A stretch of 64,000 bases of DNA from Thioalkalivibrio sulfidiphilus HL-EbGr7 (GTDB lineage: Bacteria; Pseudomonadota; Gammaproteobacteria; Ectothiorhodospirales; Ectothiorhodospiraceae): the NCBI RefSeq assembly GCF_000021985.1, contig NC_011901.1:3048501-3112500 (forward strand). The letters are read 5' to 3'. Numbering within the stretch: position 1 is the first letter of the stretch; every line of letters begins with the position of its first letter. This document shows positions 25,222 to 38,730 of this stretch, one piece after another. Position numbers and translations under genes: made by a program. The notes below the pieces were generated by a model. It worked only from the letters and a program-made list of their open reading frames with translations, did not search any database and had not been told where the DNA came from.

Positions 25222-25332
25222 TAGAAGTACGAAGTGTGAATTGGGAGGTGCGAAGTGATGCTCGCACGCCACCGCTGAGGTTCCTCTCCCGGGCGTCCCC
25301 TTCTCACTTCCCAATTCACATTTCGCACTTCA
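25222..25332. repeat. Heptamer hairpin repeat (GTGCGAA/GTGTGAA family)
   Basis: Arm GTACGAA, GTGTGAA, TTGGGAG, GTGCGAA on the left; CTTCTCA, CTTCCCA, ATTCACA, TTTCGCA, CTTC on the right, with a loop of about 45 nt. It spans the gap between ppsA and ppsR. Confidence 0.85.
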
Positions 25333-27705
25333 GTTCTCCCCCTGCCCCGCCAGCTGCATCCAGGTGTCCACCACCGTGTCCGGATTGAGCGAGATGCTCT
25401 CGATCTTCTGCTCCATGAGCCACTGGGCGAGGTCCGGGTAGTCTGACGGACCCTGGCCGCAGATGCCCACGTACTTGCCGGCCCGGTGAGCGGCCTCGAT
25501 GGCCATGGACAGCATCTTCTTCACCGCCGGGTCGCGCTCGTCGAAGCTGCCGGCCACCAGGCCGGAGTCGCGGTCCAGGCCCAGGGTCAGCTGGGTGAGG
25601 TCGTTGGAGCCGATGGAGAAGCCGTCGAAGTGCTTGAGGAATTCGTCGGCCATCACGGCGTTGGAGGGGATCTCGCACATCATGTAGATCTTGAGACCGT
25701 TTTCGCCGCGCTTGAGTCCCATCTCGCCCAGCAGCTTGATCACCCCCTCGGCCTCGGCCAGGGTGCGCACGAAGGGCACCATGATCACCACGTTGGTGAG
25801 CCCCATGTCCTCGCGCACCCGGCGCACCGCCTGGCATTCCAGCTCGAAGCAGGCGCGGAAGTCGTCGGAGAGATAGCGCGAGGTGCCCCGGAAACCGATC
25901 ATGGGGTTTTCCTCGTCGGGCTCGTAGCGATCGCCGGCCAGCAGGTTGGCGTATTCGTTGGACTTGAAGTCCGAGAGGCGCACGATCACCGGCTTGGGCG
26001 CGAACGCGGCGCCCAGGGTGCTGATGCCCTCCACCAGGCGGTCCACGTAGAAGCTCACCGGGTCCTTGTAGCCGGCGATGCGCTTGTCCACCTCGGCGCG
26101 CAGCTCATCGGGCAGGGTGTGGTATTCCAGCAGCGCCTTGGGGTGCACGCCGATCATGTTGTTGATGATGAACTCCAGGCGCGCCAGGCCCACGCCGTGG
26201 TTGGGGATGCTGCTGAAGTGGAAGGCACGGCCCGGGTTGCCCACGTTCATCATCACCTTCACGGGCAGATCGGGCATGCTGTCGGTGCGGGTGCGCAGCA
26301 CGTCGAAGTCCAGCTTGCCCTCGTAGACACGACCCTCGTCGCCCTCGGCGCAGACCACCGTGGCCTCGGCGCCGTCGGGAATGGTATCGGTGGCGTTGCC
26401 GCAGCCCACCACGGCGGGGATGCCCATCTCGCGGGCGATGATGGCGGCGTGGCAGGTGCGACCGCCGCGGTTGGTGACGATGGCCGCGGCGCGCTTCATG
26501 ATCGGCTCCCAGTCCGGGTCGGTCATGTCGGTGACCAGCACGTCGCCGGGCTGCACCTTGTCCATCTCGTCCAGACCCGAGACCACGCGCACCTTGCCGG
26601 CACCGATCTTCTGACCGATGGCGCGGCCCGTGGCGAAGATCCTGCCGCCCTTCTGCTTGAGGCGGAACCGCTCGATCACCTGGCCGTCGGCACGGCTCTC
26701 CACGGTCTCGGGCCGGGCCTGAACGATGTACAGACCACCGTCCACGCCGTCCATGGCCCATTCGATGTCCATGGGGCGCCCGTAGTGCTTCTCGATGATC
26801 ACCGCCTGGCGGGCGAGATCCATGACCTGCTCATCGGTGAGACAGAAACGGTAGCGCTCGGCGGCCTCCACCTCCACGGTTCGGGTGTGCTTGCCGTCCT
26901 CGCCGAAGATCATCTTGATGGCCTTGGAGCCCATGTTACGGCGCAGGATGGCGGGCCGGCCGGCGGCCAGGGCGGGCTTGTAGACATGGAACTCGTCCGG
27001 GTTCACGGCGCCCTGCACCACGGTCTCGCCCAGGCCCCAGGCGCCGGTGATGAACACCGCGTCGCGGAAACCGGATTCCGTGTCCAGGGTGAACATCACG
27101 CCACTCGCGCCCACGTCACTGCGCACCATGCGCTGGATGCCGGCGGACAGGGCCACCTCGGCGTGATCGAAGCCCTGGTGCACCCGGTAGGAGATGGCGC
27201 GGTCGTTGTAGAGGGAGGCGAACACCTCGTGGATGGCCTTGAACACGCCTTCCTCGCCGCGCACGTTGAGGAAGGTCTCCTGCTGGCCGGCGAAGGAGGC
27301 GTCGGGCAGGTCCTCGGCGGTGGCCGAGGAACGCACGGCCACGGTGCACTCGCCCTCGGTCTCCGCCTCCAGGCGCTTGTACGCTTCCCGGATGGCGTCG
27401 GTGAGCGGCTGCGGGAACGGCGTCTCCACCACCCACTGACGGATGGTGCGCCCGGCCTCGCGCAGGGCGTTGATGTCGTCCACGTCCAGCTTGTCGAGCA
27501 GCCCGTTGATGCGCTTGTCCAGGTCCTCGTGGCGCAGGAACTCGCGATAGGCCTCGGCCGTGGTGGCGAAGCCGCCGGGGACCTTCACCCCGGCCTCGGA
27601 CAGCCCGCTGATCATCTCGCCCAGGGAGGCGTTCTTGCCGCCCACCCGGGGCACGTCGTGCATGCCCAGCTCCTCGAACCACAGCACATAATCGCTCATG
27701 TCCAA
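25330..27705 (-). CDS. ppsA: Phosphoenolpyruvate synthase (pyruvate, water dikinase)
   Basis: A 791-residue three-domain enzyme that converts pyruvate and ATP to PEP, the entry to gluconeogenesis. The N-terminal ATP-binding domain starts [12 protein letters not shown]; the swivelling phosphohistidine domain has [21 protein letters not shown] (catalytic His); the C-terminal TIM barrel ends with [20 protein letters not shown]. Length is normal for the family. The regulator gene ppsR lies immediately downstream in the same direction, which supports both calls. Confidence 0.97.
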
Positions 27706-28070
27706 CCTCCGCCTCTTGCCCGGAACCGGCCCGCAGACCGGCTGAATGTAATGTTCGACTGCGTATGGGAGCCCGTGACCGAACCTGTTACTTCAGCCTA
27801 GGCCACGTCCCCCGACTGCGCCAGAAAAGCATACAGACATGAATCCTGCCACCCTGTTCCCGCCTCTTGAAGAATGAGACGGCCACGGCCCAAGACATCT
27901 ATATGACCTAGGCAACAGTATACGGACGATCAGCGCCCGAAACACCCGCATCCGGGCAGGGCTGCTTCACATCCAGGGGAACCATCCCGGACCCATGCGG
28001 ACAAAAATACTCGTAGACATCCGCACTTAAGCCTCACACCCGCCCGCAAGTCCACACCAAGGTCAAGGTC
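27706..28070. other. Divergent intergenic region between ppsA and the protease operon
   Basis: 365 bp with no plausible frame. It must contain the promoters for ppsA (-) and for the operon starting at 28071 (+). I saw no repeat or convincing sigma70 pair; AGGTTGGACAT near 27700-27712 provides the ppsA ribosome site. Confidence 0.6.
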
Positions 28071-28589
28071 ATGCCCCGCATCATCCCCTGGATCCTGATC
28101 CTCGCCGCCTGGACCCTGCCGCTCCAGGCAGAGACCCCGGAGCCCCCCAGGGACCTCGCCGAACTGAGCATCCACGGCTGGGTGGAACAGGTGGTGCTCA
28201 AGCCCGAGAACATCCGGCTCAATGCCAAGATGGACACCGGCGCCACCACCTCCTCCCTGAACGCCCTGAACAAGGAGATCTTCGAACGCGACGGCGAGGA
28301 GTGGATCGGCTTCGACATCGTCAATCCCAGGGACGAGAACGACAAGGTGCGCCTGGAGCGCAAGATCGTGCGCTACGTGCGCATCATCCGCCACGACGGC
28401 AACCATCAGCGCCGCCCGGTGGTGAACATGGGCATCTGCATGGGTGAGCACTACCGGGAGTCGGAGATCAGCCTCATCGACCGCACCGAGCTCACCTACC
28501 AGGCCCTGATCGGCCGCAACCACATGGAAGGCCTGGTCCTGGTGGACTCCGGCCACAAGAACCTGCAAGCGCCCCGCTGCCCGGACTGA
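28071..28589 (+). CDS. ATP-dependent zinc protease-like (DUF785, retropepsin-fold) secreted protein
   Basis: 172 residues with a signal peptide (MPRIIPWILILAAWTLPLQA) and an aspartyl-protease-like core: LNAKMDTGATTSSLNAL holds the DTGA catalytic-type motif, and YQALIGRNHMEGLVLVD is the second family block. These are the RimB/DUF785 single-domain retropepsin-like proteins. It is the first gene of a conserved three-gene unit with a 7TM transglutaminase-like protein and an ATP-grasp ligase. The target peptide is unknown. Confidence 0.82.
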   Translation: MPRIIPWILILAAWTLPLQAETPEPPRDLAELSIHGWVEQVVLKPENIRLNAKMDTGATTSSLNALNKEIFERDGEEWIGFDIVNPRDENDKVRLERKIVRYVRIIRHDGNHQRRPVVNMGICMGEHYRESEISLIDRTELTYQALIGRNHMEGLVLVDSGHKNLQAPRCPD

Positions 28590-28601
28590 GCCGATCTCCC
28601 C

Positions 28602-30122
28602 GTGAAAAGACTGCATCTGACCCTGCTGGTGCTGGGACTGCTGGCCACCAGCCTCGCCCTCGTTGTCTACAAGGTCAACGTGCTGGGCTTCCCGCTCAAA
28701 CCCGCCCAGACCGTGGACAACTGGGTCGTGGAGGCGCGGGTGGCCTTCGAGCCCAGCGGCGGCGCGCTCACCGCACGCCTGGCCCTGCCCGACGACCCGC
28801 CGGGCTTCGGCATCCTGGACGAGAACTTCATCTCCCGGGGCTATGGCCTGACCACCGCCCAGCAGGGCGAGAACCGGGAGGCCCAGTGGACCACCCGCAC
28901 CCCCAGCGGCCGGCAGGTGCTCTACTACCGAGCCACGGTCTATGAGCTGAACCGGGAACGCCCCGCGCCCCCCTACCCCGGCCCGGTGTCGGTCCCCGAC
29001 TACGACGAACCCTACCGCTCCGCCGCCCTGGCCCTGCTGGACAGCGTGCGCGATCGTTCCGCCGACATCACCAGCTTCGCCTCGGTGCTGGTGAGCGACC
29101 TGAACTCCCCCGCGCCGGACGAGAACGCGGCGCTGTTCATCCAGCGCAATGCCTCGGATGCCGACAAGGTGCGCACCACCATCGAACTGCTCGCCGGCGC
29201 GCGCATACCGGCGCGTATGGTGCATGGCATCACCCTCACCGACTGGGCCCGGCAGGCCGCGCCGCTCGCCTGGCTGGAGGTGCACAACACCCGGGAATGG
29301 GTGCCCATCAACCCGCACACCGGCACCGCCGGCTACCCCGACAACTTCCTGGTGTGGTGGTACGGCGACCGCGAGCCCCTGCTGGTGGACCGGGCCAACC
29401 GCCCGGAGATCAGCTTTGCGGTGACCCGCAACATCCACGACGCCATCGACGTGGCCGAACAGCGCGCCCAGCTGATGGACTCTCGCGTGGTGGACTTCTC
29501 CCTGTTCGGCCTGCCGGTGCAGACCCAGAACATGTACCGGGTGCTGCTCATGGTGCCCGTGGGCGCGCTGATCATCGTGCTGCTCAGAAACGTGGTAGGC
29601 ATCCAGACCTTCGGCACCTTCATGCCGGTGCTGATCGCGCTGTCCTTCCGCGAGACCCAGTTGCTGGGCGGCATCATCCTGTTCACCCTGATCGTCTCCC
29701 TGGGCCTGGCCATCCGCTTCTACCTGGAACACCTCAAGCTGCTGCTGGTGCCGCGGCTGGCCTCAGTGGTGATCGTGGTGATCATGCTCATGGCCGGCAT
29801 CAGCATCCTGAGCCACAACTTAGGCATCGAGCAGGGCCTGTCGCTCGCCCTGTTCCCCATGGTGATCCTGGCCATGACCATCGAGCGCATGTCCCTGGTG
29901 TGGGAGGAACACAGTCCCGCGGATGCCATCAAGCAGGGGCTCGGCAGTCTCGCCGTGGCGGCGGTGAGTTACCTCATCATGATCAACCGCCAGCTGGAGC
30001 ACCTGATCTTCGTGTTCCCGGAACTGCTGCTCATCGTGCTGGCGCTCACCCTGCTGCTGGGCCGCTACACCGGCTACCGGCTCACGGAACTGCTGCGCTT
30101 TCGCGCGCTGAAGGCTCCGTGA
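28602..30122 (+). CDS. Inactive transglutaminase fused to seven transmembrane helices
   Basis: 506 residues, GTG start. One N-terminal helix (about 5-25) is followed by a periplasmic domain of transglutaminase fold: ATTIELLAGARIPARMVHGI and WLEVHNTREWVPINPHTG are recognisable, but the usual catalytic Cys is absent, the position reading as NASDADKVRTT. Residues about 315-500 form roughly seven hydrophobic helices (LLMVPVGALIIVLLRNVVGI; FGTFMPVLIALSF). It overlaps the next gene by TGATG. The domain pair is known as a genome-context family; its role is not established. Confidence 0.82.
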   Translation: MKRLHLTLLVLGLLATSLALVVYKVNVLGFPLKPAQTVDNWVVEARVAFEPSGGALTARLALPDDPPGFGILDENFISRGYGLTTAQQGENREAQWTTRTPSGRQVLYYRATVYELNRERPAPPYPGPVSVPDYDEPYRSAALALLDSVRDRSADITSFASVLVSDLNSPAPDENAALFIQRNASDADKVRTTIELLAGARIPARMVHGITLTDWARQAAPLAWLEVHNTREWVPINPHTGTAGYPDNFLVWWYGDREPLLVDRANRPEISFAVTRNIHDAIDVAEQRAQLMDSRVVDFSLFGLPVQTQNMYRVLLMVPVGALIIVLLRNVVGIQTFGTFMPVLIALSFRETQLLGGIILFTLIVSLGLAIRFYLEHLKLLLVPRLASVVIVVIMLMAGISILSHNLGIEQGLSLALFPMVILAMTIERMSLVWEEHSPADAIKQGLGSLAVAAVSYLIMINRQLEHLIFVFPELLLIVLALTLLLGRYTGYRLTELLRFRALKAP

Positions 30123-31096
30123 TGCTGGGGCGCTGGTTCATCACACCGGGAGAACTGCGCCGCCTGGGGGTGCTGGGCATGAATGCGCGCAACGGCGCGT
30201 TCATCGCCCGGTACAACGAGCGCGCCAACTACCCGCTGGTGGACGACAAGCTGCAGACCAAGCGCCTGGCCCTGGACGCTGGCATCGCCGTACCGGAACT
30301 CTACGGCGTGATCGAGACCCAGCAGCAGATCAAGCGCCTGGGCCGGATGCTCGAGGGCCGCGAGGACTTCGTCATCAAGCCCGCCCACGGTGCGGGTGGC
30401 GACGGCATCCTGGTGATCACCGGACGCATGGGGGAAGGGTTTCGCCGCGCCAGCGGCAAGCTCATGGACCTGGAGGCCATCGCCCACCACTGCGCCAACA
30501 TCCTGAGCGGCATGTACAGCCTGGGCGGGCAACCCGACCACGCCATGATCGAATACCGGGTGCAGTTCGACCCGCTGTTCGAGCAGGTCAGTTTCCAGGG
30601 CGTGCCCGACATCCGCACCGTGGTCTACCGGGGCTACCCGGTGATGGCCATGGTGCGCCTGCCCACCCGGCAGGCGGACGGCAAGGCCAACCTGCACCAG
30701 GGCGCCGTGGGCGCCGGCGTGGAGATGGGCAGCGGCGAAACCCTCACCGGCGTCTGGCACAGCCGCATCACCACCCGCCACCCGGACACCGGCGCGGACA
30801 TCGCCGGCATCCCCATCCCCGACTGGGACACACTGCTGGAACTGGCCGCCCGCTGCCACGACCTCACGGACCTGGGTTATCTCGGTGTGGACGTGGTGCT
30901 CGACCGTGACCACGGCCCGCTGATTCTGGAGCTGAATGCCCGCCCGGGTCTGGCCATCCAGATCGCCAATCGGGAAGGCCTGATGCACCGCATCCGCGCC
31001 GTCGACCAGCGCCTGGCGGACATCGAGGACACGGAAGACGCCAGGGCCCGCGCCGCCTGGGCGCAGGTGCGTTTCGCGGTCAGCCAGGCAGTTTGA
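30122..31096 (+). CDS. Alpha-L-glutamate ligase-like ATP-grasp protein
   Basis: 324 residues of the RimK-related ATP-grasp fold: DDKLQTKRLALDAGIAVPEL, the P-loop-like FVIKPAHGAGGDGILVI, and the metal-binding end LGVDVVLDRDHGPLILELNA-RPG. RimK enzymes add glutamates to protein or peptide C-termini; the acceptor here is unknown. It is translationally coupled to the 7TM protein and follows the protease-like gene, so the unit may attach, sense and trim a peptide at the envelope (inference). Confidence 0.85.
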   Translation: MLGRWFITPGELRRLGVLGMNARNGAFIARYNERANYPLVDDKLQTKRLALDAGIAVPELYGVIETQQQIKRLGRMLEGREDFVIKPAHGAGGDGILVITGRMGEGFRRASGKLMDLEAIAHHCANILSGMYSLGGQPDHAMIEYRVQFDPLFEQVSFQGVPDIRTVVYRGYPVMAMVRLPTRQADGKANLHQGAVGAGVEMGSGETLTGVWHSRITTRHPDTGADIAGIPIPDWDTLLELAARCHDLTDLGYLGVDVVLDRDHGPLILELNARPGLAIQIANREGLMHRIRAVDQRLADIEDTEDARARAAWAQVRFAVSQAV

Positions 31097-31098
31097 TA

Positions 31099-32007
31099 TC
31101 AGGGCACATGCAGCACCGTCTCCGCGCTGTGCACGCCCCGCACGCGGCGCTCCAGCCAGCGCTGGGTGGCGCGCCAGTCGAGGCTGTGACGTGAAACGGC
31201 CTCCAGGGGCAGCAGCAGGAAATCCTCCCGGGCGTTGACCGTGACACGCTGCCCGCCGCCCGGTTCCTCATGCACGCGGATCGCCTGCCACTCGATGCGC
31301 CCGCCTTCCCGCTGCACCTGCGCGAGCACCCGGGCCAGGGTGTCCAGCTCCAGGGCCAGGGCGCGGCATTGCGCCTCGCGGGCCTCCCGGTCGCGCAGAT
31401 CCGGGTACTCGCAACGCACCCCCGTCTCCGACTCCCAGCCCGGGCGCCGATCCTGGCTGAAACTCCAGGCGCCATTGACCCAATCCGCCCCCTGCACCGC
31501 GCGGGCCGTGCCCTGGGCCCGGGTCTCGCCGCAGGGATAGTCGGCGCAGAAGCGCTGCAGCAGTTCCGCCTCGCGACGGGCCTGGTCGCGCATGCGCGGC
31601 CAGCTCACCAGCACGGGGCGGCCGTCCAGGAGCAGCATCACCTGCCCCTGGCGGTCCGCGCGCACCCGTACATCTTCAGCCACGTTCAGCCACTGCCAGG
31701 CCTGGTCCAGCTCCCGCAGTTGCAGGGCCGTGGCCTGGCGCCAGCGATCCAGCCTGCGATCCCGCGCCGCATCCGCCCCCCGCGCCAGCCCCGATTCGCC
31801 CAGCTCCTCCTCGTAGGCCTGCACCATGGCCTCAAGGGTTAGAGAAGCAAAGGCCATGTGGGACTGCACCGGCGCATCTTTCAGGGTCTCCACCACCTGC
31901 AGCAGGGCGGAGGGCTGCACGTACAGCTGGCGCGGTGCGTCGGCGTGGGCAGGGAGAACCCCGTGGCCCAGGGTTGTGAGGAGAATGAGGGAGAGGAATG
32001 TGCGCAT
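31099..32007 (-). CDS. Uncharacterised periplasmic protein
   Basis: 302 residues from MRTFLSLILLTTLGHGVLPAHA, a signal peptide, at 32007; the longer ATG at 32115 lacks a signal. The mature part is rich in Arg, Gln and Glu and strongly helical to residue ~190, with a cysteine set (CADYPCG, CEYPD, CRAL). I do not recognise the family. It converges with the ATP-grasp gene with only 2 nt between the stops and might belong functionally with that operon. Confidence 0.7.
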   Translation of the reverse strand: MRTFLSLILLTTLGHGVLPAHADAPRQLYVQPSALLQVVETLKDAPVQSHMAFASLTLEAMVQAYEEELGESGLARGADAARDRRLDRWRQATALQLRELDQAWQWLNVAEDVRVRADRQGQVMLLLDGRPVLVSWPRMRDQARREAELLQRFCADYPCGETRAQGTARAVQGADWVNGAWSFSQDRRPGWESETGVRCEYPDLRDREAREAQCRALALELDTLARVLAQVQREGGRIEWQAIRVHEEPGGGQRVTVNAREDFLLLPLEAVSRHSLDWRATQRWLERRVRGVHSAETVLHVP

Positions 32008-32226: not shown

Positions 32227-32667
32227 CTATGCACCAGCTCGCTTGGTTTTAGTATTAAACTTCGGTTTGTGCTTATACACCAAATACTCTTCAATTTCTG
32301 TTCTGCCGAACAATATTGGAACAACCACCACATGCAGCGTTTCCATGTATTCATTTACTTTCTGTTCAATATGTTCAGGGAATTTTTGTTTTGATGTTGC
32401 TTTCTCATAACCCTTAATATGTGAAAATAACTTTACTCCGATATTGCGTCTTAATGTGTGATTTACTGTGCGGCGAACATCGCGCATTCTTGCCTTAAGC
32501 GACCCACTTTCACCAACATAGACAATTTTTCCTTTCTCAAAAAAAGCATATATACTTGCCTTTTCAGTTATATGTTTTGCCCACTTTGTTGAAATATCAA
32601 ATGGTTTCCTATTTGATCTACAGAAAATGGTCTCTTCATATTCCTTGATTATTTTCTCTACGTTCAT
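32227..32667 (-). CDS. GIY-YIG nuclease-domain protein
   Basis: 146 residues, AT-rich codons. The GIY-YIG core is visible: ASIYAFFEKGKIVYVGESGSLKARMRDV (first and second Tyr motifs and Arg), a His-rich helix, and FGRTEIEEYLVYKHKPKFN carrying the metal-binding Glu and the final Asn. There is no extra DNA-binding domain. Such stand-alone domains occur in restriction enzymes, homing elements and defence islands. It is downstream of and co-oriented with the ABC-3C operon, but separated by 163 bp and a weak terminator. Confidence 0.78.
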   Translation of the reverse strand: MNVEKIIKEYEETIFCRSNRKPFDISTKWAKHITEKASIYAFFEKGKIVYVGESGSLKARMRDVRRTVNHTLRRNIGVKLFSHIKGYEKATSKQKFPEHIEQKVNEYMETLHVVVVPILFGRTEIEEYLVYKHKPKFNTKTKRAGA

Positions 32668-32830: not shown

Positions 32831-34726
32831 TTATTTGATCCTGAGCGTTCGTTTATCGTGCGTGTAGTGCGGCCCAATGACATAGTCATCGAGTTCTAAC
32901 TCGGGGTTCATCATTGATGTGGTGTAGATGACCTGGTGACGTTCACGTAGTTCGGTCGAATGTTCGACGATCAGGCGCTGGAATAAGTGACTTCTCTCAA
33001 CCTCCATTCCCTTGTCTTCGACGTTGTCGAGCAGAATGAATCGTGGATGGTTGAATAGCTCATCGTTACCAGCAGCCATGAACAGGCTGAAAATGGCTGT
33101 GTTCTTGAGGAAGACGTTGCTGCTTTCTGCGAAATTCATCTGCCCATCGACGAACATCGCATCATCCCGAAAATTGAGCTCAACGAGCTCCGGGTTCTTG
33201 AACTCTGGCTGGCGATCGAGGTCGCTTCTAAGCAACAAGCGCCCCCACTCAGAAACAGCATTAAGCGCCTTGCTTCGCCGGCTTACCGCCCGACGTTCTA
33301 GCGCTTTCCTGCGGTCCGAAAGATCCGTGATTTGTCCTTGCAGCTCCTGCTTACGCAGTGACAGAGATTGAACTTCTTCCGCAACGGACAACATGTCTGT
33401 CAGGTGGGTGAGTTCTTGATCAATCTGTCCGATGCGCTGATAGCGTTCTGCCAAGAAGGCTTCTCGTGGCGAAGAGCTCAGGTCAAATTTGGTCGAGTAC
33501 TCGGATAGGTTTTTCGAATAGCTCCTTTTAAGCCAGCGAAGTTCGACGCGATCCTTGGTGAGCCTTGCCTCATGTTCTGCGAAAAGTTGTTTTGACTCCC
33601 GCAATTGAATTTCGAGATCAAGCCGAACCTGGTTGTACTTCGATTTGTCTTCCTCAGGATCAGTATGCTGACCGCAAACATTGCAGACATGTGGGTCGGA
33701 TACTGGATGGAGATGCGACAGGCAAGCGGGACAACGGGTAAATTCTATTGCACCGATGGCCTGGAAAGTACTCTCAGCGACTTTAACTTGCTCGATGTGT
33801 TCTGCGAGAAATGCCTGATACTCTGTGAGCTCTCCTAACTCCAGCTCGTGTTTTGCAATGGATTCCTCCAAGGAGGCAATCGCTTTCTTCTCTTTAACCA
33901 GGCTTTGCTGTGCCGATTGCCGATCCTTCAGAAAGTCTTTGTTATCACCTTGCTCCACCAAAGAGTCGACATTTTCAATCTCTCGATATGCCGCCGACTT
34001 TTCTTCTTCCAATTGACGACATTGGCGATCGATTGCGTCCGGTCGATCAAACTGAGCTCCATGAGGTAGCGCCTGGATTAGTGATGACAACCTCTGGCTC
34101 ACCTTTGCGAATTCGGCATCCAACTCCCGGAGATTTAAGCTGATTTCATAGATCTCATAGCCGCTAATTCCGCAGATCAGGTCACCAACCGCTTCGCGAA
34201 TATCCTGTTTGTCAAATGACTCAAATCGGAACAAGCGAGTCGACGGCGTCCTTTGGTCTGAGTATAGCAGGCGCATAACTTGATGCATTGTGATGTTCGA
34301 AGCGCCGACACTTTGAGCTTCCGGAATATTCAGTGAGCGAAACATAACTTGAGAAAAGCTTTCGCGCCTCTCGGATCTTCGAATAGGGAAAGTCTCCCAG
34401 CCATCCAACGCATGCTTGTCTGCTTGATCGAATGGGCCAAAAAATACTTTGATGGGCGTGGTCTTGTTCCCGATTTTTCTTAAGAGAGTTAGCTTTCCAT
34501 GGTTTGTAACCACCTCTGCCTGCACCTCGTCACAGTGTGCGGCGGCATCCTTCCAAGAATCGAACTCACCACCAAGTGCGTAGAAGATGAAATCGGCGAT
34601 CGTTGATTTTCCTGAGCCATTCTCGCCACGGATGATGTTGACGCCTTCATGAAACTCTTGGTCATAGGCAACGTGGCCATGACGCAACACGCGCAGTCTG
34701 TTAAGTGTGAATCGTGGGCAATCCAT
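32831..34726 (-). CDS. ABC-3C system ATPase: Rad50/SMC-like with zinc-ribbon coiled coil
   Basis: 631 residues. Walker A is G34-ENGSGKST; a long coiled coil spans about 195-480 and is interrupted by a four-cysteine zinc motif C332-PAC-335 and C348-NVC-351, like a zinc hook. The C-terminal half has an ABC-signature region (NFAESSNVFLKNTAIFSLFM) and Walker B RFILLDNVEDKG (D567). LLDNVEDKG is typical of ATPases of three-component conflict systems. It starts 3 nt after the middle-component gene. It is a likely nucleic-acid sensor controlling the effector (family knowledge and inference). Codon and base use are unlike the flanking core genes. Confidence 0.82.
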   Translation of the reverse strand: MDCPRFTLNRLRVLRHGHVAYDQEFHEGVNIIRGENGSGKSTIADFIFYALGGEFDSWKDAAAHCDEVQAEVVTNHGKLTLLRKIGNKTTPIKVFFGPFDQADKHALDGWETFPIRRSERRESFSQVMFRSLNIPEAQSVGASNITMHQVMRLLYSDQRTPSTRLFRFESFDKQDIREAVGDLICGISGYEIYEISLNLRELDAEFAKVSQRLSSLIQALPHGAQFDRPDAIDRQCRQLEEEKSAAYREIENVDSLVEQGDNKDFLKDRQSAQQSLVKEKKAIASLEESIAKHELELGELTEYQAFLAEHIEQVKVAESTFQAIGAIEFTRCPACLSHLHPVSDPHVCNVCGQHTDPEEDKSKYNQVRLDLEIQLRESKQLFAEHEARLTKDRVELRWLKRSYSKNLSEYSTKFDLSSSPREAFLAERYQRIGQIDQELTHLTDMLSVAEEVQSLSLRKQELQGQITDLSDRRKALERRAVSRRSKALNAVSEWGRLLLRSDLDRQPEFKNPELVELNFRDDAMFVDGQMNFAESSNVFLKNTAIFSLFMAAGNDELFNHPRFILLDNVEDKGMEVERSHLFQRLIVEHSTELRERHQVIYTTSMMNPELELDDYVIGPHYTHDKRTLRIK

Positions 34727-34729
34727 GTC

Positions 34730-35236
34730 TTAGACCATCCTCCTCAATCCGGTTCTTTTTCGCAGATCTACCGAATCTCCTTCGGAGATTTGACTGAAAC
34801 TTCTTGCTAAGAACTCGATCACCTTGATGTCCCTCTCAGAAAGTCCACCCACAACGCGAGATTCGGCGAATTCCTCACCGGAACAGGAAAGCGAAGCATT
34901 GCCTTCATGGAGTGCATCTGAGCTCAAGAGGTTTCTGGCGGCCATGGCTTGAACGGCTTTCTTTTGAATGGACTCCATTTTGTGGAACAGAATGGATGGC
35001 GTCGGGTACGTCAAGAAGGACTTTTCGGGCTTTTGAATCTCCAGATCTTTGAATGTTGCTCGAACATCGGCGGGCATGTGTACGCTGTGCAGCAGCGGTG
35101 GATTGGCGAAGTAGAAATCGGATATGTACAGACGCTCCAACGGGGCCGTGCTCTTCTCCCAAAAATACAGCAACGCCGCAACTCGCCGGATCGCGTGGTA
35201 GATATCGAGCTGCGGATACCAGACCCTCGTCATCAT
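34730..35236 (-). CDS. ABC-3C system middle component (MC)
   Basis: 168 residues starting at ATG 35236, which overlaps the hydrolase stop (ATGA). The N-terminus MMTRVWYPQLDIYHAIRRVAALLYF and the block LERLYISDFYFANPPLL resemble the helical, winged-helix-like middle components that always stand between the CTD protein and the ATPase in ABC-3C loci. It has no enzymatic motif. Assignment rests on size, the LYISDFYF-type motif and gene order. Confidence 0.7.
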   Translation of the reverse strand: MMTRVWYPQLDIYHAIRRVAALLYFWEKSTAPLERLYISDFYFANPPLLHSVHMPADVRATFKDLEIQKPEKSFLTYPTPSILFHKMESIQKKAVQAMAARNLLSSDALHEGNASLSCSGEEFAESRVVGGLSERDIKVIEFLARSFSQISEGDSVDLRKRTGLRRMV

Positions 35237-36420
35237 TGTTCCGGGTCCCAACGGATGTAGCACTGCTCCGTCAAAAAGTACAAAGCAGCAAGAACCGTCT
35301 TATGGGAGAAATCGCGGTAATGCTGGTTCCGAGACCAGATCGGGTTAATTACTTTTTCTTGCAGCGCATCTTGCACATTATCATCGGGCGCACTCTTGCA
35401 AATTAGAGGGTGATAGATGTGGGTCATGAAATGCTGTTCGACTTCGGAGAGCAGGCCGTCGTTCCGCTCGCGCTCTTCCGTATACAGACCCAGTTTCGCG
35501 TAGTTGCGAGCAAATTTGTTCTGATAGCGGTTAGCGTTTGAGTATTCGTGCTGCCTCCCGGCGTCGATCAGCTTTTGTAACAAGTCCCGTCGGTCGTCTT
35601 CGGATTGCTCGCCGTAGTCATCTGCAGGAAACCCTGCGCTGCCATTGCCGGTCGCTTTGGGGAGTATCTTGCGAATGCGCCGTTCCAAACTCACATAGAC
35701 GACGTCTTCTTTGTCCTTGGGTTTGCTGATGTTGATATGGTCCTTATCGACGGGAATAGGCTGTGTTCCTTGAACACCTGGGTCAGCAGAATCTCTCGGA
35801 ACGACGATCGCTGCTTTCTTGGTCTTGAAAGTCTCGACAAAGACCACTGTTTTGAACTCGCTGTTTCCATTGGCGAAGTTCCGATAATGCTGATTCAACT
35901 CAGTCAATGCTCCAGAATCGTCGGTAAGCAGCCCAACGTGCTTTGAGGAAAAATGCGGTAAGAAGGCATCAAGAACCGACGCCAATGACGAGCCTTTGTG
36001 AGGCGTAGCCAAGAACACAACCATTCGGAGCGAAGATGCAATCTGCTTCCAATCTTCGTCATCAGAATCAGATGCCGTCCGGATAATCTGCTTGGCGAGA
36101 ATTCCACCGAGACTATGGCATACGAAAACCAGCGGTCTTTCTCCGATTCCTCGACCAACCATGGCCTCGATCACATTGACCGCTCGCTCATAGAGGTTCA
36201 TCTCCTTTTTAGCCCATTTGCCAAACAAGCTGGCTGGATAGCCCAGAGAATGGACGGCCGCATTAGGAATGGTGTCGCAAAGCCACTCAGGCCAGAATTC
36301 ACCGGTGTCTTCAGATTGCCACGTCTCTTCAGGATCTCCCGTTAGGCCGTGGATGAAGACGATATCTGCGTCAGAATGGTCTGGTCCGCAGACGCTACGG
36401 AAGACTAACTCTTCAGGCAT
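35233..36420 (-). CDS. ABC-3C effector: alpha/beta hydrolase fused to C-terminal partner domain
   Basis: 395 residues. Residues 1-250 form an alpha/beta-hydrolase of the SERAC1/PGAP1-like lipase type: DIVFIHGLTGDPEETW (oxyanion region), nucleophile S103 in VFVCHSLGGILAKQ, FLATPHKGS, and H228 in DKDHINIS completing a Ser-Asp-His set (D210 is a candidate). Residues about 265-395 are a helical domain (LLSEVEQHFMTHIYHPLICK; ALYFLTEQCYIRWD) consistent with the ABC-3C C-terminal domain. It is first in the operon. A lipid- or ester-cleaving toxic effector released upon ATPase signalling is the likely role (inference). Confidence 0.78.
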   Translation of the reverse strand: MPEELVFRSVCGPDHSDADIVFIHGLTGDPEETWQSEDTGEFWPEWLCDTIPNAAVHSLGYPASLFGKWAKKEMNLYERAVNVIEAMVGRGIGERPLVFVCHSLGGILAKQIIRTASDSDDEDWKQIASSLRMVVFLATPHKGSSLASVLDAFLPHFSSKHVGLLTDDSGALTELNQHYRNFANGNSEFKTVVFVETFKTKKAAIVVPRDSADPGVQGTQPIPVDKDHINISKPKDKEDVVYVSLERRIRKILPKATGNGSAGFPADDYGEQSEDDRRDLLQKLIDAGRQHEYSNANRYQNKFARNYAKLGLYTEERERNDGLLSEVEQHFMTHIYHPLICKSAPDDNVQDALQEKVINPIWSRNQHYRDFSHKTVLAALYFLTEQCYIRWDPEQ

Positions 36421-37955: not shown

Positions 37956-38594
37956 TCACCAAGCCTGGGGCTTATGCAACGAAGTCCCAGGTATGGGGTC
38001 CGGCAACAAACTCTGTTCAAGCGCCCATCTGCGGATGGGCCTTACGAAATCCGCATAGCGCTTGAGTTGCGCGGATGTCTTTCGTTTCGGCGCACCTGGT
38101 GTCACCAGGCCGATGACTTTATCGTGATGGGTCTTAACCAACCTCAGTGACTCTGCCAGATCGGAGTCATTGGATACGATCACCGCGCAATCATATGCAT
38201 CTTGCCAGGCATCATTGAGCACATGCAGGGCCAGGTTCACATCCGAGCCCTTTTCCTCATTTTTCCAGACATGTACCAGCCGAGGAGGCGGATTCGCGTT
38301 CTCCATGGAGACGCGATGTCGCAGAAAGTGGCCGTAGTAGACCTCCACCTTGGGGGAGTGCTTTTGAATAGCCCTCAGATAGGTAGCCTGTCGAATCGAG
38401 ACATCCGGGTCCTGTGCCGTGGGTTGAACCTTCGCGGTGAAATACTTAATGCGAACAAGGTTGTTGCGCTCACCCAGAACCCTGACGAACAGGGCTTCCA
38501 GATCCAGCCACTTATAGTCCGTACCCTTCAGTGAGCCATAGTAAAAATTGAACCCATCGATATAGACGATTGTGCGAAGCTGGCTGGATGACAT
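37956..38594 (-). CDS. NYN (PIN-like) domain RNase-type protein
   Basis: 212 residues from MSSSQLRTIVYIDGFNFYYG (ATG 38594, after CAGGACAGGGAA); an upstream ATG at 38666 would read through a terminator hairpin. NYN acidic residues are visible: D in VYIDGFN, D in GSDVNLALHVLNDAW, D in CAVIVSNDSDLAE. LabA/PF01936-like proteins of this length act as metal-dependent RNases or toxins. It lies at the island end beside tRNA-Phe; GC is intermediate. Confidence 0.82.
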   Translation of the reverse strand: MSSSQLRTIVYIDGFNFYYGSLKGTDYKWLDLEALFVRVLGERNNLVRIKYFTAKVQPTAQDPDVSIRQATYLRAIQKHSPKVEVYYGHFLRHRVSMENANPPPRLVHVWKNEEKGSDVNLALHVLNDAWQDAYDCAVIVSNDSDLAESLRLVKTHHDKVIGLVTPGAPKRKTSAQLKRYADFVRPIRRWALEQSLLPDPIPGTSLHKPQAW

Positions 38595-38606
38595 TTCCCT
38601 GTCCTG

Positions 38607-38633
38607 AAAAAAGCAGGGGCCCCTGAGGGCCCC
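38607..38633 (-). terminator. Rho-independent terminator upstream of the NYN gene
   Basis: On the minus strand GGGGCCC-TCAG-GGGCCCC followed by TGCTTTTTT. It lies between tRNA-Phe and the NYN start, so it can end the tRNA transcript or attenuate NYN expression. Confidence 0.8.
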
Positions 38634-38730
38634 GCGCCCGGCAGTCGAAACCACCGGGGTAGTCATGCTCTTTGTTAGACCATTGCCATGATGTCGTCAA
38701 GAAATGTCAGGGCAATGTCGCAGGCTTAAA

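What the first reader, a model, noticed from the sequence alone, without database searches (positions are those of the whole stretch)
28071..31096. Envelope protease - 7TM pseudo-transglutaminase - ATP-grasp ligase operon
A secreted retropepsin-like protein, a membrane protein with a periplasmic transglutaminase-like domain lacking its Cys, and a cytoplasmic RimK-like ligase are translationally coupled. This combination suggests synthesis, sensing and cleavage of a peptide or amino-acid chain. The three families are linked in genomes, but the substrate is not established to my knowledge.
Basis: partly seen in the sequence, partly recalled or inferred. Interest (0 to 1): 0.52.

Follow-up and report, generated by a model that had tools for sequence, protein, structure and literature searches.

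The report
rloABC envelope-stress operon
Three adjacent genes encode a secreted protease, a membrane protein and a peptide-forming enzyme; they belong to a bacterial stress system described in 2025, and comparing relatives suggests that it makes an acidic amino-acid chain, passes it outward and cuts it.

Summary
28071-28589 encodes a retropepsin-like protease with a signal peptide, 28602-30122 an inner-membrane protein whose periplasmic transglutaminase-like domain has lost Cys, His and Asp, and 30122-31096 an ATP-grasp ligase. This is the rloABC operon, characterised in Pseudomonas aeruginosa in 2025 (PMC12239564): RloA cleaves polyglutamate in vitro, and deleting rloB or rloC rescues a strain without its three RloA proteases. 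The in vivo substrate is unknown. Linkage is not sporadic: in 185 genomes of the class, 36 of 39 with RloB have RloC, against 0 of 146 without. The adjacent gene 31099-32007 is not a partner. A secreted AstE/AspA-type hydrolase is an occasional fourth gene (12 of 58 operons). New here: RloB has a sister clade with intact Cys and His and no RloA beside it, with RloC adjacent or fused, usually followed by a TPR protein and often a modelled 16-strand outer-membrane barrel. I read RloB-RloC as a synthase-exporter of a glutamate-type chain, trimmed by RloA in the rlo type and processed by the active domain and exported in the sister type. The chain and its export are inferred.

The parts
28071..28589 (+). 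rloA: secreted retropepsin-like aspartic protease, 172 aa; signal-peptide-like residues 1-20, DTGA with catalytic Asp55
   Evidence: PF05618 E 7.8e-36; nearest NCBIfam model RloA3 at 126 bits, under its cut-off of 210; PDB relatives 9g59, 9g58, 2pma; Asp55 in 58 of 58 aligned operon RloA proteins
28602..30122 (+). rloB: one N-terminal membrane helix, periplasmic transglutaminase-like domain without catalytic Cys, His and Asp, C-terminal 7TM domain; 506 aa
   Evidence: PF14400 and PF14402; triad columns; model pLDDT 89; outer-domain fold 3isr Z 15.7, TgpA Z 7.8
30122..31096 (+). rloC: cytoplasmic ATP-grasp ligase, 324 aa; start overlaps the rloB stop by one base
   Evidence: TIGR02291 476 bits, PF14397 E 2.2e-91; pocket residues invariant in 147 RloC domains

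Best explanation
The locus is an rloABC operon. Most likely RloC, in the cytoplasm, uses ATP to join acidic amino acids (probably glutamate) into a chain. RloB, docked to RloC, passes the chain through its membrane domain; its periplasmic transglutaminase-like domain, no longer catalytic, holds the emerging chain, and RloA cuts it. The chain acts in the periplasm as a charged polymer or a tag on the envelope, so its build-up without RloA is harmful at low osmolarity. In a sister family the same B-C core keeps the transglutaminase Cys and His, has no adjacent RloA, and is usually followed by a TPR protein and often by an outer-membrane barrel, so there the product probably leaves the cell. Shown here: gene content, membership, lost triad, invariant ligase pocket, B-C fusions. 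Shown in print: polyglutamate cleavage in vitro and genetic epistasis. Inferred: the nature of the chain, its passage through RloB, docking in unfused systems, and the cause of the stress phenotype.
For: Family matches. Published genetics and biochemistry. RloC co-occurs with RloB: 36 of 39 RloB genomes, 0 of 146 others. RloB and RloC are one polypeptide in 25 loci, which joins the ligase to the membrane protein and puts the RloB C-terminus in the cytoplasm. ATP-grasp pocket residues are invariant across all types that have RloC (147 domains). In the sister clade a TPR gene follows in 46 of 49 unfused and 20 of 21 fused loci with enough downstream DNA, a barrel gene in 36 of 49 and 9 of 21, and neither in 53 rlo loci; barrel model pLDDT 89.8, 16 long strands. 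In a third clade without RloC anywhere, a RimK-type gene lies beside RloB in 3 loci (L092, L093, L095). Basic residues that I place at the published polyglutamate contacts are kept: R115 and R138 in 57 of 58, R101 in 50 of 58, Lys or Arg at 53 in 57 of 58.
Against: No chain has been seen in any of these organisms. The 7TM domain has no clear structural relative and no shown transport; homology to the polyglutamate-capsule subunit CapC was not supported. RloC's amino acid is unproven; TIGR02291 is a 'hypothetical equivalog'. Three genomes with inactive RloB and RloC have no secreted RloA (G120, G167, G558). One sister-type genome (Henriciella) has a secreted RloA-like protein elsewhere. The loss of Cys is one change on the tree, so the contrast with RloA is a single event.
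Confidence: 0.5

Rival explanations
1. RloB-RloC adds glutamate-type residues to a protein, lipid or peptidoglycan acceptor at the membrane, and RloA removes them, as RimK and RimB do to ribosomal protein S6. There is no free polymer and no export of a chain.
For: RloA cuts a polyglutamate tail from a protein in vitro, and the authors consider modified proteins as substrates. RimB and RimK are the nearest paralogues. Shape and beta-lactam phenotypes point to the cell wall.
Against: No acceptor is known. RloC is cytoplasmic while RloA acts outside, so a modified acceptor would still have to cross. A TPR-barrel exit in the sister clade is easier to explain with an exported product.
Confidence: 0.3
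2. RloB is a receptor: its dead transglutaminase-like domain senses a peptide or polymer in the periplasm and regulates RloC in the cytoplasm; RloA tunes the signal.
For: A pseudoenzyme domain outside a membrane bundle is a common sensor layout (recalled). The lost triad fits a binding role.
Against: The sister clade keeps Cys and His in all 80 scanned loci, so the domain is not basically a sensor; conserved Gly/Pro motifs lie in the membrane part.
Confidence: 0.15
3. The three genes are neighbours by chance and do not work together.
For: None found.
Against: 58 of 79 surveyed RloB loci have A-B-C together; B-C gap at most 15 bases in 55 of those 58; published epistasis.
Confidence: 0.01

Closest known systems
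rloABC operon of Pseudomonas aeruginosa (Lormand et al. 2025, PMC12239564; listed as PA1768-PA1767-PA1766 in PMC7314104)
   Same: Same three families, same order, secreted protease with DTG, inactive transglutaminase-7TM protein, ATP-grasp protein.
   Different: Sequences are diverged: the Pseudomonas-tuned NCBIfam models for RloA and RloB match below their cut-offs. P. aeruginosa has three secreted RloA proteases; the window's genome has one plus a RimB-like one.
RimB-RimK (ribosomal protein S6 glutamylation)
   Same: Retropepsin-like protease paired with an ATP-grasp ligase; RimK makes poly-alpha-glutamate (introduction of PMC12239564).
   Different: Both cytoplasmic, no RloB. The window's genome has a separate RimB-like protease at 481868 and a RimK at 479750.
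Poly-gamma-glutamate synthase CapB/CapC (PgsB/PgsC)
   Same: Amide ligase with a membrane subunit that makes a glutamate chain (recalled).
   Different: Profile comparison of the 7TM domain with CapC gave at most 9% probability.
Synthase-dependent exopolysaccharide secretion (alginate type)
   Same: The sister operons have an inner-membrane synthase, a TPR protein and an outer-membrane barrel; AlgE is among the barrel's Foldseek matches, along with many porins.
   Different: The synthase is an ATP-grasp ligase, so the product is an amide chain and not a sugar polymer (inferred). No homology is claimed.
Anbu operon (ATP-grasp, alpha-E, transglutaminase-like, Anbu; PMC6376114, passages read)
   Same: An ATP-grasp protein beside a transglutaminase-like protein.
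   Different: From the passages read: a four-gene set with Anbu, a proteasome/HslV homologue, and no retropepsin or 7TM-transglutaminase protein described.

Membership tests
rloABC operon | Secreted retropepsin-like protease with DTG motif | tested here: met
   PF05618, DTGA at 55, signal-peptide-like N-terminus by eye
rloABC operon | Inactive transglutaminase domain fused to 7TM | tested here: met
   PF14400, PF14402; Cys, His and Asp absent
rloABC operon | ATP-grasp protein RloC | tested here: met
   TIGR02291 over cut-off
rloABC operon | Order A-B-C in one direction, closely spaced | tested here: met
   12-base gap, then one-base overlap
rloABC operon | NCBIfam cut-offs for the named RloA and RloB proteins | tested here: not met
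   RloA3 126 of 210 bits, RloB 461 of 900; I take these models to be tuned to close Pseudomonas orthologues, so this bars the exact names, not the operon type
rloABC operon | Polyglutamate cleavage and role in low-osmolarity growth | not testable with these tools
   Published for Pseudomonas only
RimB-RimK | Cytoplasmic protease without signal peptide beside RimK | tested here: not met
   Gene 1 has a signal-peptide-like start; gene 3 is TIGR02291, not RimK
CapC/PgsC | Homology of the 7TM domain with PF14102 | tested here: inconclusive
   hhalign probability at most 9%, shallow profiles
Active transglutaminase-like enzymes | Cys-His-Asp triad in the window protein | tested here: not met
   Asp, Leu and Asn at these columns; the fold is kept (3isr Z 15.7, TgpA Z 7.8)

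The most novel reading that the evidence does not exclude
The rlo operon is the periplasm-confined branch of a wider, uncharacterised envelope-spanning machine that makes and secretes a poly-amino-acid chain: ATP-grasp ligase and 7TM protein (sometimes one polypeptide) as synthase-exporter, a live transglutaminase-like domain that cuts or attaches the chain as it emerges, a periplasmic TPR scaffold and a 16-strand outer-membrane exit barrel. The layout parallels synthase-dependent exopolysaccharide secretion, but the product is an amide-linked chain. In the rlo branch the domain's catalytic role passed to the secreted retropepsin RloA. The sister type occurs in at least six phyla.
Probability: 0.35. 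Interest if true: 0.76.

Novelty: new member of a known kind. Interest (0 to 1): 0.5.

Why it matters
The rlo operon matters for osmotic tolerance, biofilm and antibiotic tolerance in P. aeruginosa (published), yet what its enzymes act on is unknown. The sister operons give a way in: a single-polypeptide membrane protein and ligase, a probably active cysteine-type domain that can be probed, and an outer-membrane exit, so the product may be found outside the cell, where it is easier to purify. If the product is a secreted peptide polymer, it would be a synthase-dependent secretion route for a non-ribosomal amino-acid chain.

Tried and rejected
CapC/PgsC homology of the 7TM domain: suggested by eye from a G..MP motif. 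hhalign with RloB profiles (30 rows; 159 rows; scanned sister clade; third clade) against CapC-domain sequences from the ten loci that passed the cut-off never exceeded about 9% probability. Not supported; the profiles were shallow, so not excluded.

Fold of the 7TM domain: Foldseek gave only a transglutaminase-type match (3isr, three chains) at E <= 0.001. VIA listed NqrD (Z 7.2-7.3) and AcrB-type bundles (Z 5-6), which the tool warns can be a common helical arrangement. No claim is made.

Fourth partner 31099-32007: rejected.

'RloA replaced the transglutaminase many times independently': rejected. On the tree of the 7TM part the Cys changes once, and the independent-pairs test has no power.

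Literature: nothing in the held library on an RloB family with an active triad, TPR protein and barrel (searches; listings seen). The likely source of these families, Iyer et al. 2009, is not held and was not read, so a prior description there is possible. Most subscription journals and all preprints are outside the library.

Promoter and terminator scans of 27690-28080 found nothing; palindromes after the operon were not pursued.

Full report
WHAT IS THERE. Gene 1 (28071-28589) matches PF05618 and, in NCBIfam, the RloA3, RloA2, RloA and RimB models, each below its cut-off. It starts with a signal-peptide-like stretch (by eye) and carries DTGA at residue 55. Gene 2 (28602-30122) matches PF14400 and PF14402, and NCBIfam's RloB model at 461 bits (cut-off 900). 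Gene 3 (30122-31096) is over the cut-off for TIGR02291, 'alpha-L-glutamate ligase-like protein'. The stop codon of gene 2 and the start codon of gene 3 share one base.

WHAT IT IS. This is the rloABC operon, characterised in P. aeruginosa in 2025 (PMC12239564; read: outline and abstract, introduction, two of four parts of the results, the rlo-operon section, discussion, and passages). There the secreted RloA proteases are retropepsin-like dimers that cut polyglutamate in vitro. A strain without its three RloA proteases cannot grow at low osmolarity, and deletion of rloB or rloC cures this. The authors leave the physiological substrate open. The same genes are listed as PA1768-PA1767-PA1766 in a suppressor screen (PMC7314104, one passage), and loss of an 'inactive transglutaminase' gene raises vesicle production in Shewanella (PMC12096838, passages).

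IS THE LINKAGE REAL. PF14402 (RloB) was found in 39 of 185 genomes of the class. The same 185 were searched with TIGR02291: a strong RloC match (E below 1e-40) is present in 36 genomes, all among those 39, and in 0 of the other 146 (best there 3.5e-13). A larger draw gave 79 of 369 genomes and 81 matches. I fetched 80 of the 81 (one, in G597, was left out by oversight). One of the 80 (G077, a 20-bit match) gave no RloB with my profile, which leaves 79 loci. In 58 of the 79, RloA, RloB and RloC stand together; in all 58 they run in one direction, the B-C gap is at most 15 bases in 55, and the A-B gap at most 50 in 52. Some of the other loci are cut by contig ends.

FOURTH PARTNER. Clustering of neighbours shows one recurrent extra gene in the rlo type: an AstE/AspA-type hydrolase in 12 of 58 loci. 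I annotated only some of them: PF24827 for L108 and L079, NCBIfam for L109, and L093 of the third clade. In nine it lies just downstream of rloC on the same strand; in L060 (cut by the contig end), L079 and L109 it lies upstream. Most begin with a signal-peptide-like stretch (by eye). The window's operon lacks it; the genome's one PF24827 match lies far away at 589781.

THE SISTER CLADE. Eight of the 79 surveyed RloB proteins keep a full Cys-His-Asp triad. A scan of genome contigs with four of them returned 80 loci. The scan's patterns contained the His and the Asp motif, but not the Cys. All 80 have the Cys and the His; 68 have the Asp and 12 another residue (Gly or Cys) in that column. Transglut_core scores 60.5 and 64.2 bits for two of them, against 21.9 for the window protein. 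None of the 88 entries has an RloA-type gene within 3 kb, whereas 66 of the 71 survey loci without the full triad have a PF05618-type gene within 3 kb, and 0 of those 66 have the Cys. In one of the 66 (L093) that neighbour is RimB-like, without signal peptide (by eye). Five loci have neither (L042, L049, L067, L091, L112).

GENE CONTENT OF THE SISTER CLADE. 63 entries have B and C unfused (or C cut off by the contig end) and 25 have B and C in one polypeptide. Of loci with at least 4.5 kb downstream of B, a TPR gene is present in 46 of 49 unfused and 20 of 21 fused, and in 0 of 53 rlo-type; a roughly 400-residue barrel gene in 36 of 49, 9 of 21 and 0 of 53 (the six duplicates are counted twice here). 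The TPR proteins mostly begin with one hydrophobic stretch (by eye). Of five barrel-cluster proteins tested against Pfam only L047 and its duplicate L126 matched a barrel family, weakly, but an AlphaFold2 model from 26 sequences gives 16 long strands at pLDDT 89.8, and Foldseek lists porins, FadL and AlgE. Phyla: Pseudomonadota, Myxococcota, Nitrospirota, Bacteroidota, Spirochaetota, Campylobacterota (two loci without a phylum; many records are metagenome bins with uncertain labels).

GENOME-WIDE CHECK. Fourteen genomes known here only with the sister type were searched for PF05618: six from the survey and eight chosen from the 80 scanned loci. Six have none, seven have only RimB-like proteins without a signal peptide (by eye), and one (Henriciella) has a secreted RloA-like protein elsewhere. 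Two genomes, G033 and G584, have both RloB types; the RloA-type gene sits beside the inactive one. Against a simple hand-over: three genomes with inactive RloB and RloC have no secreted RloA (G120, G167, G558).

TREE. On the 7TM part alone (86 of 159 rows, quick method) three groups appear: a third clade (7 rows), the rlo type with four 'other' rows (34), and the sister clade (45) with the fused proteins as one branch. The Cys needs one change and protease adjacency five. So the contrast is a single evolutionary event, and its direction is not shown.

THIRD CLADE. L049, L050, L090-L093, L095 and the truncated L096 have RloB without RloC beside it. In the seven genomes that have only this type, TIGR02291 finds nothing or only weak, RimK-level matches. 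A RimK-type gene lies beside RloB in L092, L093 and L095. This hints that RloB can work with a glutamate ligase of the RimK kind.

RESIDUES AND FOLDS. In 147 RloC domains from all types that have RloC the main ATP-grasp pocket residues are invariant in every row that covers them (in the 324-aa protein K86, D257, E270, N272, among others; their role is recalled from ATP-grasp enzymes). In 58 operon RloA proteins R115 and R138 are kept in 57, R101 in 50, and residue 53 is Lys or Arg in 57; I place these at the published polyglutamate contacts by motif only. Caveats: the L061 protease has no DTGA/DSGA match and the signal of L105 is unclear; the two disulfide Cys of published RloA are not uniformly kept (C123 in 44 of 58). 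The outer domain of the RloB model matches a putative cysteine protease (3isr, Z 15.7) and TgpA (Z 7.8).

MECHANISM. B and C nearly always going together, their fusion, and an unchanged ligase pocket argue that RloC works at RloB. The fusion also puts the C-terminus of RloB in the cytoplasm. RloA acts outside, so what the ligase makes must cross the membrane, and RloB is the only membrane protein of the set. The published epistasis (protease loss cured by ligase or RloB loss) is what one expects if RloB-RloC makes something that RloA must remove. Polyglutamate is the best guess from the RloA data. Whether it is free or attached is open; attachment is the main rival.

NOVELTY. The window's operon is a new member of a published system. 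The sister operons are, as far as the held library shows, undescribed, but Iyer et al. 2009 could not be read.

Noticed in passing
window 32831-36420 (-): Lamassu-like / ABC-three-component defence genes: an AAA/SMC-type ATPase (PADLOC LmuB, E 1.8e-45), a middle component (PF20291, MC5) and an alpha/beta hydrolase with CTD9 (PF20285).
   Followed up: partly
window 32227-32667 (-) and 37956-38666 (-): A small GIY-YIG protein (PF20815) and a NYN-domain protein (PF01936; PADLOC HEC-09, E 1.1e-43) flank that set; perhaps a defence island.
   Followed up: no
L221 517-1923 (Aliikangiella coralliicola genome): One 469-aa frame matches both the RloA/RimB-type protease profile and the ATP-grasp profile: apparently a RimB-RimK fusion.
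   Followed up: no
L078 1929-3930: A rimB/rimK-like pair lies divergently beside rloA, so rim and rlo genes are neighbours there.
   Followed up: no
L031-L035 and L037-L041: Proteobacterial proteins of over 1000 aa with two tandem CapC (PF14102) domains at the N-terminus, in five genomes of one family.
   Followed up: no
window 25330-27705 (-): A PEP-synthase-like gene (PPDK_N, PEP-utilizers) is divergent from rloA.
   Followed up: no
literature: The names rloA-C also denote restriction-linked genes and the anticodon nuclease RloC (recalled), so name searches may mix them.
   Followed up: no
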